This document shows, one piece after another, positions 38,646-44,483 of a DNA stretch of 64,000 nt. Numbering within the stretch: the first letter of the stretch is position 1; each line of letters begins with the position of its first letter. The stretch comes from Psychroflexus longus (GTDB lineage: Bacteria; Bacteroidota; Bacteroidia; Flavobacteriales; Flavobacteriaceae): positions 1 to 64,000 of the forward strand of contig NZ_JAIQZE010000012.1 of NCBI RefSeq assembly GCF_020164595.1, given 5' to 3'. The notes below the pieces were generated by a model. The model did no database searches, had not been told where the DNA came from, and was given only the letters and a program-made list of their open reading frames with translations. The position numbers were made by a program, and so were the translations under genes.

Positions 38646-39966
38646 AAGTTATAGATAATAAGGCAAATCCGTACATAAATCCAGGTAGCGCCACTCGCAT
38701 CGCCGAGTGGTTAATGGTCAGAAACCAAAAAGCTACAAAAGGCAGCATAAGCAGGTTTCTATTTTTAGAGAGTAGAAACCCTAAGGGAATCAAAAATAAA
38801 ATAGCTAAAGCTAAAACCCCTAGCAAGCCATGCTCAGCCAGCATTCTAGCTACTTCGTTATGACTAGCCCCACCTCCGCCTTCTTCTTCTATTCTGAAAA
38901 ACTTACCCATGCCCACTCCTACCCCTAAAAAAGGATCTTCTAAGAAAGCAGACAATTCTTCACTTATGATTTCACCACGACCAGTGGTAATATCTTTTTC
39001 TTCGCCTAAGGCATTTTCTCCGGCATAGCGGTTGACAATCAGACCTCCGGTAACAGCAACTACTAATCCCCATAATAAAAAGCCCCCTACACCTAGCCCA
39101 ACCAGCTTGACCGTAGCCTTCGCCTTCTTAGCTAATGGCGCCCAGTTGATAAATAAGACTGTAAAAACAGCCATCATCAATATAGCTGTGATAAAGCCAC
39201 CTCTGGAAAAGGTCAGCAAACAGCGATAAGTAAGAAGCCCTAAAAGACCAATGTTAACTATATTCAGAAGTGAATTCCTATATGGGATTAGAAATCTCAC
39301 ATAAGTCAAAAACATACCTAAGCCTAGAACTGTAGCGACCTGATTACCGCTATAACCACCAGAAGCTGCCTGATTGGACTCTGTAGTAAATACAATTTGT
39401 TCGAGCGGAGGAGCGTAAAGAATAATATAAACCACCATAGATATAATAGGCAATATCATCATATCTACAACTTTTAACAAAGTCTTGAATTTTATTTCTC
39501 TATGATAGCAAAACAAGGCTGTAGCAAACAAAGATAAGGGACCAGATAAATTGAATAAGATGGCTTTTCTAAAGCTTTCTTCAAAATAATCAAAATTGAG
39601 ATAAGTAATCACCACACCAGGCAACAACAAGCCTAGGAAAACTAAAACAGGCCAGGCCTTTAACTTAAAACCTTCATAGAACATGCCCAGCAACATAAAG
39701 AAAATCACCGTATACTTTCCCAGTTCCCAAAAGGGCATGGCTTTAGTCATTCTTAGGAATATTTCAGCCGCGGCTATATACCCGGCAGCACCAAGCGCAT
39801 AATAAGTTTTATCTTTTTTGGATATAATTTGGTAAACAAAGTAAACTACGATACCTAACAAATAAAGCTGCGCCATAGCTCTCACCTGACTCACCACAAA
39901 CCCAATACCGACATGAAATGCCAATAGTTGTAATTGCTTATAACTTGTTTTATCTAAGCCGAACAT
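38575..39966 (-). CDS. O-antigen ligase/polymerase family membrane protein
   Basis: A Wzy/WaaL-like protein with about eleven membrane helices and a large periplasmic loop holding ITTGRGEI and DPFLGVGVGMGKF..GGGASHNEVARMLAEHG, the conserved His-containing region of Wzy_C. It polymerises or ligates polysaccharide repeats. 463 residues with a basic tail (KKKKKTKVK). It overlaps the preceding GT4 gene by 17 bases. Confidence 0.88.
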   Translation of the reverse strand: MFGLDKTSYKQLQLLAFHVGIGFVVSQVRAMAQLYLLGIVVYFVYQIISKKDKTYYALGAAGYIAAAEIFLRMTKAMPFWELGKYTVIFFMLLGMFYEGFKLKAWPVLVFLGLLLPGVVITYLNFDYFEESFRKAILFNLSGPLSLFATALFCYHREIKFKTLLKVVDMMILPIISMVVYIILYAPPLEQIVFTTESNQAASGGYSGNQVATVLGLGMFLTYVRFLIPYRNSLLNIVNIGLLGLLTYRCLLTFSRGGFITAILMMAVFTVLFINWAPLAKKAKATVKLVGLGVGGFLLWGLVVAVTGGLIVNRYAGENALGEEKDITTGRGEIISEELSAFLEDPFLGVGVGMGKFFRIEEEGGGGASHNEVARMLAEHGLLGVLALAILFLIPLGFLLSKNRNLLMLPFVAFWFLTINHSAMRVALPGFMYGFALLSITYASKKKKKTKVKTAPVPRQQAVA

Positions 39967-41092
39967 TTAGAATTTTTTCTTTAAGCGCTTTGTTGTAATA
40001 CGCATAGGTAAATCGCTGGGCAAAGGTATAATTTTTAAGCCTAAGCTCATTGAGTTCTGAGTTCGTAAAACCCGACAATTGAAGTAAGCTTTGAACTAAA
40101 GCTTTTGCAGATAATTCCTTTAAAAGAAATCCATTATCGCCATTAGTGATGTAGTCTTCAATGCAGGACACCTTTGAGACGATAGGCACACAGCCAAACG
40201 CCATCGCTTCTCCTACGACTTTAGGGAAGCCTTCAGATTTTGAAGGTAATACTAAAGCATCCGACTGGGCTAAGATATCATGCACTTCAGGTTTGGGTAA
40301 AAAGCCATGAAAGTAAATGTCCATCTTCAATTGTTGAGCCAGCTCTTCATATTTAGCCCGTTCAGGCCCATCTCCAACAAAATGAATAGTTTTAACCTGA
40401 ATATGCTCAGGAAGCTTTTTTAATGCCTCCAGAATTAGGGGTACGCCCTTATGTTCATTTAAAGCGCCTACAAAACAAAGCGTCCAGCCCTGGTCTTTTG
40501 GATTTGACTTTTGGTTAATTGCTGATTTGGCTTGTGTATAGGTCTCTTTTGTAAAACATGGATTATCAAAACTTAAAAACTGAGGTTTAGTTTCCCAATT
40601 ACCGTTGTAAGTGACCTGAGTTTCAAGTTCAATGTAATTTTGAAGCCATTGTTTCTGAAGTCGATTACCTAAGGGCATCTCAGGATCTACCCAGTTGCCG
40701 GCATACTTCACCCAGTAAGGTTTGGCAGTGAACCACTTCAAATACGGTAATACATAAAGTCCCATTCCGGTAGGCGCCCGAAAATGTATAATATCAGCTT
40801 TCTGAATGCCCTTCTGAATTTGTCTCAGATTGGATAAAGCTGTGAAACCGATACTTAATTTCCTCAAACCTTTCCCTCCAGAAGGTTTTAAAGGGATAAA
40901 TATTATGTTTTCAGTATCTGCATAGGCCAGACTACTTTTAGGAGGTTGTCCCTCATGCAAAGGCGCCACATGAATAATGCGATCAAAGATGCCCAGTAAA
41001 TGATTGATCTCCGTCACAGTCGATCCCCAGGCTTTGATGATACCGTTTTCATCTTGATAATGTTCAGTATGGGAGATGATGCAGAGGGTCAT
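39950..41092 (-). CDS. Glycosyltransferase family 4
   Basis: A GT-B transferase of 380 residues. The C-terminal motif is SEGFPKVVGEAMAFGCVPIVS, and CFVGALNEHKGVPLILEAL opens the second Rossmann domain. It overlaps the O-antigen ligase gene. Two GTGTATTC units lie about 30-48 bases upstream. Confidence 0.9.
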   Translation of the reverse strand: MTLCIISHTEHYQDENGIIKAWGSTVTEINHLLGIFDRIIHVAPLHEGQPPKSSLAYADTENIIFIPLKPSGGKGLRKLSIGFTALSNLRQIQKGIQKADIIHFRAPTGMGLYVLPYLKWFTAKPYWVKYAGNWVDPEMPLGNRLQKQWLQNYIELETQVTYNGNWETKPQFLSFDNPCFTKETYTQAKSAINQKSNPKDQGWTLCFVGALNEHKGVPLILEALKKLPEHIQVKTIHFVGDGPERAKYEELAQQLKMDIYFHGFLPKPEVHDILAQSDALVLPSKSEGFPKVVGEAMAFGCVPIVSKVSCIEDYITNGDNGFLLKELSAKALVQSLLQLSGFTNSELNELRLKNYTFAQRFTYAYYNKALKEKILNVRLR

Positions 41093-41123
41093 ATGCGTTT
41101 TTAGTTGAGTGTTTACTGTTGTT

Positions 41124-41691
41124 CGTGTATTCGTGTATTCGAAATTTAATATTTGGTTTTTACATATTTCTTATAACCTGATAATAATTTTCTTGTTTTT
41201 TCAAGGATTTCAAATACTTCATGAACTGTTTTATCATCTATGTATTTTAGATTTTTTGCTATTATAATTTGAGTATCTAATTCAGCCGCTGAACCAATCG
41301 CATATCCTATAAACTGATGTAACTCTTTCCAACTATTTCGACCACTCCCTTCTGCTATGTTTGAGGGTATTGAGACTGCAGATCTTCTCATCTGATTAAC
41401 CAGTCCGTAGTGTTCAGATTTAGGAAAAGCTTCTGTTAGCTTATATACCAGTGTAACTAGATCAATTGAAACTTTCCAAACATCTAATTCTTTATGATTC
41501 ATAATACTTCGTTTATTCGTTTATTCGTGTATTCGAGTAATTGTGTATTAGTCTATTGGTGTGTTGGTGCAATAGCCAACAAGTATATACAGAACACTCA
41601 ACTTCACAAATATACGGCTGGAAATATAAATCAAATCTTTCTGCTATCCGACTATTCGAATACACGATTATACCATTATACGACTATTCGA
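41124..41691. repeat. Duplicated unit, copy 1 (intact four-helix gene)
   Basis: About 560 bases from the two GTGTATTC units before 41141 to CGACTATTCGA at 41691. A second copy is at 42846-43671. Both share the left GAAATTTAATATTT, the four-helix gene, and on the right a segment ACTTCACAAATATACGGCTGG and CCATTATACGAC. Confidence 0.85.
41146..41502 (-). CDS. Four-helix bundle protein (S23/IVS type)
   Basis: An 118-residue protein of the family first seen in intervening sequences of 23S rRNA (TIGR02436). Visible are LDVWKVSIDLV, FPKSEHYGLVNQMRRSAVSIPSNIAEGSGR and a C-terminal helix with LSGYKKY. The family forms pentameric four-helix bundles of unknown role. This copy is intact; an interrupted copy lies at 42859-43506. 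Confidence 0.92.
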   Translation of the reverse strand: MNHKELDVWKVSIDLVTLVYKLTEAFPKSEHYGLVNQMRRSAVSIPSNIAEGSGRNSWKELHQFIGYAIGSAAELDTQIIIAKNLKYIDDKTVHEVFEILEKTRKLLSGYKKYVKTKY

Positions 41692-42778: not shown

Positions 42779-42781
42779 TTC

Positions 42782-42853
42782 GTGTATTCGTGTATTCGTG
42801 TATTCGTGTATTCGTGTATTCGTGTATTCGTGTATTCGTGTATTCGTGTATTC
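42782..42853. repeat. Perfect octamer array (GTGTATTC)9
   Basis: Nine identical 8-base units, read GAATACAC on the minus strand. The array ends three bases upstream of the ATG (42778) of the glycosyltransferase gene. Confidence 0.97.
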
Positions 42854-43067
42854 GAAATTTAATATTTCGTTTTTACATATTTCTTATAACCTGATAATAA
42901 TTTTCTTGTTTTTTCAAGGATTTCAAATACTTCATGAACTGTTTTATCATCTATGTATTTTAGATTTTTTGCTATTATAATTTGAGTATCTAATTCAGCC
43001 GCTGAACCAATCGCATATCCTATAAACTGATGTAACTCTTTCCAACTATTTCGACCACTCCCTTCTG

Positions 43068-43361
43068 TCTAACCTGTGAAATACGATTTGAGTCTATTTT
43101 TCAAGAACATTTTACCATAATGTGTTTTAAAGTACTTCTCTCTTCTCAATGCATCATTTTGACATAAACAAGCTTCAAAATAAATCATCTTAAATGGTCT
43201 TCTATTTTTTGTAGATTCTACGTAACCTTTATTATGTTGCTCAAATCGTAAATTCAAATCCTGAGTGTAACCCGCATAATTTTTGCCGTCGGTTTCACTT
43301 TGAAGAATGTAAACGTAATAAAAATCTTTCATTAAGCTTTGCATTTATTTCACAGGTCAAG
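43068..43361. mobile_element. Minimal GIY-YIG element with terminal inverted repeats
   Basis: About 294 bases that replace three bases (CTA, 41355-41357) of the intact four-helix gene. Ends carry perfect 12-base inverted repeats: ACCTGTGAAATA at 43072-43083 and TATTTCACAGGT at 43346-43357. The only gene inside is the GIY-YIG nuclease, whose last codons lie in the left repeat. No transposase and no clear target duplication. Confidence 0.8.
43069..43332 (-). CDS. GIY-YIG family nuclease
   Basis: An 87-residue stand-alone GIY-YIG domain of the UvrC/URI class: YVYILQS and YAGYT form the first two strands (with variation of G-I-Y), LRFEQHNKG holds the catalytic Arg, and EKYFKTHYGK holds the catalytic Glu. 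The ATG at 43332 is preferred over an ATG four codons upstream because the conserved strand starts close behind. The C-terminus YFTG is written by the left inverted repeat. It may act as a homing endonuclease for its target. Confidence 0.88.
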   Translation of the reverse strand: MKDFYYVYILQSETDGKNYAGYTQDLNLRFEQHNKGYVESTKNRRPFKMIYFEACLCQNDALRREKYFKTHYGKMFLKNRLKSYFTG

Positions 43362-43655
43362 TGTTTGAGGGTATTGAAACAGCAGACCTTCTCATCTGAT
43401 TAACCAGTCCGTAGTGTTCAGATTTAGGAAAAGCTTCTGTTAGCTTATACACAAGAGGAACTAAATCTATAGATACTTTCCAAACATCTAATCCTTTATG
43501 ATTCATAGTATTTCGTTTATTCATTTATTCGTGTATTCGTATATTAGTCAACAAGCATATACAGAACAATCAACTTCACAAATATACGGCTGGAAATATA
43601 AATCAAATCTTACTGCTATCCGACTATTCGAATACACGACTATACCATTATACGA

Positions 43656-44483
43656 CTAAACGACTATTCGATTCTCCAAATCCATCGGCCTTACAAACTC
43701 AATGTCTTGACCAGAAGCTGTCAACTGTTCCAAGAAGTTTTTAAAATTCGCCAGGCTCTCTTTTTTGCTAGGGAAATCCAACATTAAAGGGTGGGCGCTG
43801 ATGGTGTAGGTTGGATGATTGGTGTTCAGAATATGATCTACGATATAAGAATCAAAACCCGTATAGTGATTTTCCAGGACTGTAATTCCTTTATAACTGA
43901 TCACTCGCCCAGTGGGGTTGCGCTTAACTCTAAATAGCTTTTGAACTATGGTTTTAAACGTCACCCTTACCCAGGTATATTGGTTCTTTTTCAACAATTT
44001 AATAATCGACTCATTATCTGCAGCCTTAAAAAAAGGATACACACCGCGATCTCCCCAACTAAAAGCGCCACGCCTTAGCCAGGACATAGGACGATTATGC
44101 GGAGGCACAAAGCCTGTTACTTTTTGTTGATTTCCAATCGCTTTTTCCAGCACTAACTGACTTCTTTTTAAACTCTTATCTACCTGATTCCACTGAAAAA
44201 TCGAGGACCATTCGTGTCGCCAGGAATGCGAAGCGATTTCATGTCCCCGTTCGTGAATTTCTTTGATAAGATTCGGAAAGGTATAAGGCTCTATCCCTTC
44301 TTCTGCTGAAAATCCAGTAATCGCAAAACAGCATTTGATAGCATAGTCATCCAATATATCCAGAACAAGTCTCACTTGATCCTGCTCCCGTTTGAGATTT
44401 TGAAAATTATAATTGTAAGGATAAGATGCATTGATAAGTCCAATGGCTCCATCAAAATCCCAGATTAATATGATCTTTTTCAT
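43656..44483 (-). CDS. Polysaccharide deacetylase-like protein
   Basis: A NodB-type carbohydrate esterase of 275 residues. Visible are WDFDGA near the N-terminus (metal Asp pair), HEIASHSWRHEW (metal His residues) and VPPHNRP. No signal peptide, so it probably acts on lipid-linked or nucleotide-linked sugar in the cytoplasm. The ATG at 44483 follows the GNAT stop after three bases. Its last codons lie in repeat copy 2. Confidence 0.85.
   Translation of the reverse strand: MKKIILIWDFDGAIGLINASYPYNYNFQNLKREQDQVRLVLDILDDYAIKCCFAITGFSAEEGIEPYTFPNLIKEIHERGHEIASHSWRHEWSSIFQWNQVDKSLKRSQLVLEKAIGNQQKVTGFVPPHNRPMSWLRRGAFSWGDRGVYPFFKAADNESIIKLLKKNQYTWVRVTFKTIVQKLFRVKRNPTGRVISYKGITVLENHYTGFDSYIVDHILNTNHPTYTISAHPLMLDFPSKKESLANFKNFLEQLTASGQDIEFVRPMDLENRIVV

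What the first reader, a model, noticed from the sequence alone, without database searches (positions are those of the whole stretch)
43068..43361. A 0.29-kb GIY-YIG nuclease element inserted in the conserved motif of a four-helix-bundle gene
An intact four-helix gene (41146-41502) and a second copy (42859-43506) allow a direct before/after comparison. In the second copy the codons for SIPSN-IAEG, the most conserved part of the family, are split by about 294 bases that hold only a small GIY-YIG nuclease gene. The insert has perfect 12-base terminal inverted repeats (ACCTGTGAAATA / TATTTCACAGGT), and one of them writes the last codons of the nuclease. GIY-YIG enzymes are known as homing endonucleases of introns; an insertion without intron or intein, in a conserved site of a multicopy gene family, would be a minimal homing-type element. 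The mobility is inference.
Basis: partly seen in the sequence, partly recalled or inferred. Interest (0 to 1): 0.87.

Follow-up and report, generated by a model that had tools for sequence, protein, structure and literature searches.

The report
Palindrome-ended miniature GIY-YIG homing element
A 294-base piece of DNA that holds one small DNA-cutting enzyme and matching mirror-image ends has landed in the most conserved spot of a gene; dozens of relatives with the same kind of ends sit in the conserved spots of other multicopy genes across several bacterial phyla, so this looks like an undescribed family of very small mobile elements.

Summary
Window 43068-43361 interrupts a four-helix-bundle (PF05635) gene at SIPSN^IAEG. 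It holds one 91-aa GIY-YIG gene between perfect 12-bp inverted ends, and an intact paralogue (96%) lies 1.7 kb away. Relatives carry the same kind of ends (TTYA-CCCNGTGAAATA ... TATTTCACNGGG-TRAA; 72 compared, median 285 bp) in Bacteroidota, Cloacimonadota, Patescibacteria, Elusimicrobiota and others. Fourteen other copies sit in four-helix genes, most at the same N-I-A-E-G codons; others sit in conserved motifs of epimerases, tyrosine recombinases, YhcG nucleases, ORF6N, RAYT and IS5-type genes. The two arms co-evolve (at least 10 independent changes at one position) even where the 3' arm is non-coding. In one genome two recombinase paralogues carry copies 98.4% identical in flanks only 88-93% identical: evidence of movement. 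In the epimerase class the element also brings a replacement gene start, as fungal mitochondrial mobile endonuclease ORFs do for gene ends. Best reading: a new family of intron-less homing-type elements. Cleavage and mobility are inferred, not shown; an intact target in the same genome counts against a simple homing model.

The parts
43068..43361 (-). whole element, 294 bp: CTTG-ACCTGTGAAATA ... TATTTCACAGGT-TAGA on the minus strand
   Evidence: comparison with the empty paralogue 41146-41502; conserved termini in 72 relatives, information content falls to background beyond 4 nt outside CCC/GGG
43069..43344 (-). GIY-YIG nuclease ORF, 91 aa
   Evidence: PF01541 E 3.7e-17; dN/dS about 0.05-0.2 in most pairs of relatives
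43346..43357 (-). 5' arm of the terminal inverted repeat (ACCTGTGAAATA)
   Evidence: co-varies with the 3' arm in relatives
43072..43083 (-). 3' arm of the terminal inverted repeat (TATTTCACAGGT), also coding Y-F-T-G
   Evidence: kept in relatives whose ORF stops before it
43358..43361 (-). 5' terminal tetranucleotide CTTG (TTYA/CTTG class)
43068..43071 (-). 3' terminal tetranucleotide TAGA (TRAA class), supplies the stop codon
43362..43506 (-). 5' part (N-terminal half) of the interrupted four-helix gene, ending ...SIPSN
   Evidence: 95.8% identical to paralogue residues 1-48
42859..43067 (-). 3' part (C-terminal half) of the interrupted four-helix gene, beginning EGSGRNSW...
   Evidence: 98.5% identical to paralogue residues 50-118
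41146..41502 (-). intact four-helix paralogue (empty site at 41355-41357)

Best explanation
The insert is one copy of an undescribed family of about 0.28-0.37-kb mobile elements. Each consists of a single-domain GIY-YIG endonuclease gene bounded by co-evolving palindromic ends. It most likely spreads as an intron-less homing element: the nuclease cuts an uninterrupted copy of the conserved gene motif, and the break is repaired from an occupied copy or relative, which copies the element in with a little flanking sequence. Where the host gene is needed (epimerases), surviving insertions also carry a fresh copy of the gene start behind the element, so the gene is restored. Where it is dispensable and multicopy (four-helix gene, as here), the gene is simply broken. 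Shown by sequence: the ends and their co-variation, recurrent same-site insertion, transfer between paralogues, purifying selection on the nuclease. Inferred: cleavage, repair-mediated copying, the role of the palindromic ends.
For: Same ends on relatives in many phyla. Arms co-vary: core pairs 6-9 Watson-Crick in 163/164 cells against 141.7 +/- 2.3 shuffled; on the nuclease tree at least 11 changes between Watson-Crick states at position 1 and 10 at position 7; the 3' arm is kept in elements whose ORF ends before it. Recurrent insertion in the same motif of homologous genes, joined flanks matching Pfam or NCBIfam across the junction. Target class follows the nuclease tree: 17 changes against 31 shuffled, minimum 27. 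Genome G338: element 98.4% identical in two paralogous recombinase genes, 150-nt flanks 88.0% and 92.7%, p = 1e-5; left-flank differences rise with distance (2, 7, 10, 9, 23 per 50 nt) although against the intact paralogue the bin next to the site is high (19 of 50). Window copy and Haloflavibacter copy: element 88.8%, flanks 59% and 49%, same codons. dN/dS about 0.05-0.2. Gene restored behind the element in 9 of 10 epimerase loci.
Against: No cleavage or mobility experiment. The same genome keeps an intact, 96% identical target 1.7 kb away, and G338 keeps an intact paralogue, so the enzyme is not cutting every homologous site. The 91-aa protein has no DNA-binding domain beside the catalytic fold; its nearest folds are UPF0213 and the structure-specific Slx1, ahead of I-TevI. 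Co-evolving palindromic ends are unexplained by plain homing. Jumps to unrelated genes need a second, ectopic process.
Confidence: 0.62

Rival explanations
1. A transposon-like element: the GIY-YIG enzyme acts directly on the palindromic ends (as duplex ends or as a hairpin in single-stranded or cruciform DNA), excises or copies the element and joins it at new sites; homology-driven homing is secondary.
For: Strict co-evolution of the arms with no excess of G-T over A-C one-sided deviations, so the symmetry looks read as DNA. No shared target sequence beyond the 4-nt ends. Jumps into unrelated genes. Slx1-like fold, which in Slx1 acts on branched DNA.
Against: No consistent target-site duplication; 0-5 nt of the target are replaced. 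Copy number per genome is mostly one or two. Recurrent hits on the same codons of homologous genes. Target sites are not hairpin-rich.
Confidence: 0.22
2. The element is removed from RNA (an unknown type of intron, or RNase III-type excision as for 23S rRNA intervening sequences), so the host gene still works.
For: Complementary ends could close an RNA stem; most host genes keep both halves open; the element is co-directional with the host gene in all classes except IS5.
Against: No Rfam match. No G-U wobble excess in the stem. 294 bp almost filled by the ORF leaves no room for a group I or II core. The number of target bases replaced varies (0-5), so exact excision would often shift the frame.
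Confidence: 0.06
3. No mobility: the insert and its relatives are an old conserved gene arrangement or an assembly artefact.
For: Single copy in this genome.
Against: Same ends in unrelated genes and phyla, element more alike than flanks, many independent assemblies including complete genomes such as Draconibacterium orientale.
Confidence: 0.02

Closest known systems
Mobile endonuclease ORFs (mORFs) of fungal mitochondria (Allomyces atp6; Glomus atp6, atp9, cox2, nad3; PMC3630166)
   Same: Intron-less endonuclease gene inserted in a conserved gene; in the epimerase class it is accompanied by a replacement piece of the host gene that restores the reading frame and displaces the native piece
   Different: Bacterial, about 0.3 kb, replaces the gene start rather than the C-terminus, bounded by co-evolving palindromic ends; the window copy has no replacement piece and breaks its gene
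Free-standing homing endonucleases of T4-like phages (SegA-G, MobE; intronless homing; PMC2988022)
   Same: GIY-YIG or HNH nuclease genes without intron; mobE of phage Aeh1 sits in and splits a conserved gene (nrdA)
   Different: Seg genes lie mostly between genes and cut a neighbouring gene; no conserved terminal palindromes reported there; these elements were not found in phages, plasmids or viral contigs
UPF0213-type small GIY-YIG proteins and Slx1
   Same: Closest solved folds (1zg2, 1ywl; Slx1-Slx4)
   Different: Known as stand-alone or repair nucleases, not as cargo of a palindrome-ended element
Insertion sequences / MITEs with terminal inverted repeats
   Same: Short element with terminal inverted repeats and one enzyme gene
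   Different: No DDE or HUH transposase, no consistent target-site duplication, same-site recurrence, low copy number
Group I introns and inteins with homing endonucleases
   Same: Insertion at the most conserved codons of a gene; GIY-YIG enzyme
   Different: No intron core (no Rfam match); stops at the junction rule out an intein

Membership tests
GIY-YIG nuclease superfamily | Pfam PF01541 above cut-off, conserved Tyr, Tyr-x-Gly, Arg, Glu, GIY-YIG fold | tested here: met
   62.8 bits against cut-off 22.6; Y10 and Y12 at least 90%, Y23, G25, R33, E69 invariant; model pLDDT 88 matches UPF0213 and Slx1
Intron-less homing endonuclease element | Endonuclease gene inserted in a conserved coding sequence with no intron or intein | tested here: met
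Intron-less homing endonuclease element | Recurrent insertion at homologous sites and transfer with co-converted flanks | tested here: met
   15 four-helix sites, most at the same codons; G338 paralogues 98.4% against 88-93%, with a gradient on the left side only
Intron-less homing endonuclease element | The enzyme cleaves the empty allele and not the occupied one | not testable with these tools
   needs protein; an intact paralogue persists in the same genome
Insertion sequence / transposon | Terminal inverted repeats at both ends | tested here: met
   co-varying arms; recognition by the enzyme not tested
Insertion sequence / transposon | Known transposase and target-site duplication of fixed length | tested here: not met
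   only a GIY-YIG gene; no consistent duplication, 0-5 nt replaced
Group I intron | Catalytic intron core | tested here: not met
   no Rfam match up to E 0.5 in 8 loci including this one; ORF fills the insert
Intein | In-frame fusion with both host halves | tested here: not met
   stop codon directly after SIPSN-T and before TEGSGRN
Fungal-type mobile endonuclease ORF with replacement host segment | Element followed or preceded by a divergent copy of the host segment it displaces | tested here: inconclusive
   met in 9 of 10 epimerase loci, not in the window copy or other four-helix copies

The most novel reading that the evidence does not exclude
A new class of bacterial mobile element in which a lone Slx1-like GIY-YIG domain works on its own co-evolving palindromic ends, while the target is chosen by nucleic-acid homology of the flanks (no DNA-binding domain and no common target motif), and which can carry a replacement piece of the gene it invades. 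A sister branch that does the same in tRNA genes would make gene-restoring GIY-YIG elements a general feature of Bacteroidota genomes.
Probability: 0.3. Interest if true: 0.92.

Novelty: new variant of a known kind. Interest (0 to 1): 0.83.

Why it matters
At about 0.29 kb this would be among the smallest autonomous-looking mobile elements, with almost no sequence apart from the enzyme gene and its ends. It shows homing-type behaviour in bacterial chromosomes outside introns and inteins, with two strategies for tolerating the host gene (hit a dispensable multicopy gene, or bring a replacement start). It gives a test bed for how a single GIY-YIG catalytic domain without a DNA-binding module finds its targets, and why homing elements acquire transposon-like ends. 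It also supplies clear paired occupied/empty sites in one genome.

Tried and rejected
Relatives in phages (two 39% hits without annotation), plasmids (none) and viral contigs (none): no vehicle found. Solo or empty palindromes (MITEs) in this genome: none; the exact ends occur only at this element. RNA stem hypothesis: no wobble excess and no Rfam match. Hairpin-loop target hypothesis: target sites are not more hairpin-prone than neighbouring positions (mean -2.85 against -2.89 kcal/mol; in a loop 16% against 26%). Fixed target motif: none beyond the 4-nt termini. Fixed target-site duplication: none. Literature searches for this element found nothing; most subscription journals and all preprints are not held, so absence is weak evidence.

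Full report
OBSERVATION. The window region was read and its ORFs listed. The four-helix-bundle gene 41146-41502 (-) is intact (118 aa; PF05635 E 3.2e-37; TIGR02436 E 2e-35). A second copy, 42859-43506 (-), carries a 294-bp insert, 43068-43361, exactly as reported. Read on the minus strand, the empty site TCAAACA-TAG-CAGAAGGG (SN-I-AEG) has become TCAAACA-CTTG-ACCTGTGAAATA ... TATTTCACAGGT-TAGA-CAGAAGGG; three bases of the target are replaced or displaced. The only gene inside is a 91-aa GIY-YIG nuclease (PF01541, E 3.7e-17). The exact 12-mer end occurs twice in the whole 2.95-Mb genome, once at each end of this insert, so the inverted repeat is not a chance feature. The joined flanks find the intact copy at 96% identity and only a 65% relative elsewhere.

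THE FAMILY. A scan of 85,000 species genomes with the nuclease gave 51 loci, and 8 of 199 genomes of the same family (this one included) hold a near relative. Aligning the surroundings showed that nearly all carry the same architecture: CCCNGTGAAATAATTTTAAAT at the 5' end and CTCAAATCKTATTTCACNGGG at the 3' end. Two further surveys (22 of 391 and 8 of 395 genomes) added relatives down to about 50% identity. A de novo search for inverted repeats in them found ends at the same place with different cores: CCCCGTGAGATA/TATCTCACGGGG, CCCCGTCAAATA, CCCCGTTAGATA, CCCCGTAGGATT and others. Over 72 elements (264-365 bp, median 285) the information content outside CCC/GGG is confined to exactly four bases on each side (TTYA or CTTG before, TRAA after) and is background beyond. 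This fixes the boundaries and shows that there is no common target sequence.

THE ENDS ARE A NUCLEIC-ACID SIGNAL. In most copies the 3' arm codes for the last residues (S-Y-F-T-G), so coding constraint had to be excluded. In several elements (L044, L056, L058, L061, L063, L075 among them) the ORF ends before or within the arm's outer part and the arm is still there. The arms co-vary: among 41 elements the core positions 6-9 pair in 163 of 164 cells (shuffled 141.7 +/- 2.3), while positions 14-22 and the flanks do not exceed shuffles. On a nuclease tree at least 11 changes between Watson-Crick states are needed at position 1 and at least 10 at position 7. One-sided departures (position 4 left out) are about as often A-C (8) as G-T (10), so there is no sign of RNA wobble pairing; the symmetry looks read as DNA. 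Relatedness can inflate shuffle tests; the tree count is the safer figure, although the tree rests on 87 columns and many forks are open.

WHERE THEY SIT. Reading the two flanks as one interrupted protein shows insertion in multicopy genes, mostly in their conserved motifs, confirmed across the junction by Pfam or NCBIfam for representatives: four-helix bundle genes (15 loci; most at the N-I-A-E-G codons, some at the equivalent motif of other subfamilies), sugar-nucleotide epimerases at GGAGF^IG (10), tyrosine recombinases (11; for example in LGHS^VKTT and HTFR^HSFATHLL), YhcG PDDEXK nucleases (2), ORF6N (1), REP-associated tyrosine transposases (5; two of them, L117 and L122, judged by eye), Fib_succ_major gene ends (3; one tested, below Pfam cut-off), IS5-type transposases (3) and a phospholipase-like gene (1, by eye, no family hit). 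Fifty-one of 75 elements could be assigned. Target class follows the nuclease tree (17 changes; shuffled mean 31, minimum 27 of 200), so lineages specialise but switch. The element points the same way as its host gene in every class except the IS5-type genes. Zero to five target bases are lost, depending on the locus, and no fixed duplication is made.

EVIDENCE OF MOVEMENT. (i) In genome G338 two paralogous recombinase genes carry the element at the same site: elements 98.4% identical (5/313 differences), 150-nt flanks 88.0% and 92.7% (29/300), Fisher p = 1e-5. On the left side differences rise with distance (2, 7, 10, 9, 23 per 50 nt), although against the intact third paralogue the bin next to the site is high (19 of 50). 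This is what homing with co-conversion, or gene conversion, would leave; the right side shows no gradient. (ii) The window element is 88.8% identical to that of Haloflavibacter putidus, while the flanking four-helix sequences are 59% and 49% identical, at the same codons. (iii) dN/dS of the nuclease is about 0.05-0.2 in most pairs of elements in different places, so its function is selected. (iv) In the window the two four-helix copies differ at 1/209 positions on one side of the insert and 12/145 on the other, compatible with a repair tract ending at the insert, but a single case.

GENE-RESTORING INSERTIONS. In nine of ten epimerase loci the element is followed by a second gene start that restores the reading frame, while the displaced start lies before the element. 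In L075 the repeated 97 bp are 99% identical; in L042 and L075 remnants of a further upstream copy show tandem insertion; elsewhere the two starts differ in sequence (L009, L042), as if brought from another source. The closest documented parallel is fungal mitochondrial mobile endonuclease ORFs that bring a replacement C-terminus (PMC3630166). Splitting of a conserved gene by a free-standing nuclease is known for mobE in nrdA of phage Aeh1 (PMC2988022).

MECHANISM. The best-supported reading is intron-less homing: cut of an empty conserved motif, repair from an occupied homologue. Shown: architecture, recurrence, transfer between paralogues, selection. Inferred: cutting, repair, how the enzyme finds the site. 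Against the simple model: an intact, nearly identical target persists 1.7 kb away, the enzyme is a bare catalytic domain (model pLDDT 88) closest to UPF0213 and the structure-specific Slx1, and the palindromic ends need a role. A transposon-like action on the ends is the main rival. Target sites are not hairpin-prone.

NOVELTY. No paper on such an element was found in the held library, which is incomplete. Each part has a known parallel, so it is filed as a new variant of homing endonuclease elements. The combination (minimal size, co-evolving palindromic ends, many host-gene motifs, restored gene starts, bacterial chromosomes) appears undescribed.

Noticed in passing
L002-L035, L139-L141 (own genome: contig C42 about 82354-82596; contig C7 about 39655-40294): The next subfamily of small GIY-YIG genes (about 30-55% identical, without the CCC..GGG ends) sits at tRNA genes in 24 of 26 loci tested, against 1 of 33 loci of the palindrome-ended family. 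Typical order for tRNA-Arg/Ala/Met: tRNA 5' part, GIY-YIG gene, intact tRNA. For tRNA-Asn: intact tRNA, then the GIY-YIG gene, in some loci with a tRNA 3' part behind it. This looks like insertion inside the tRNA with the gene restored.
   Followed up: partly
L139 (G174:C34, 6988-9781): Eight tandem GIY-YIG units of about 364 bp in a species of the same genus, each followed by a copy of a tRNA-like 3' end (GGTTCGAGTCC...CGCTACTA).
   Followed up: partly
window 41109-41691 and 42822-43663: The four-helix gene lies in a duplicated segment of about 0.6 kb on both sides of a glycosyltransferase gene, bordered by 8-bp tandem repeats TTCGTGTA (42779-42856); the segment itself may be a repeat element.
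   Followed up: no
window 42859-43506 against 41146-41502: Divergence of the two four-helix copies changes abruptly at the insert: 1/209 on one side, 12/145 on the other.
   Followed up: partly
G338 (L110, L124, L128-L130): One Bacteroidota genome holds five copies of palindrome-ended elements, four of them in tyrosine recombinase genes; a good genome for studying movement.
   Followed up: partly
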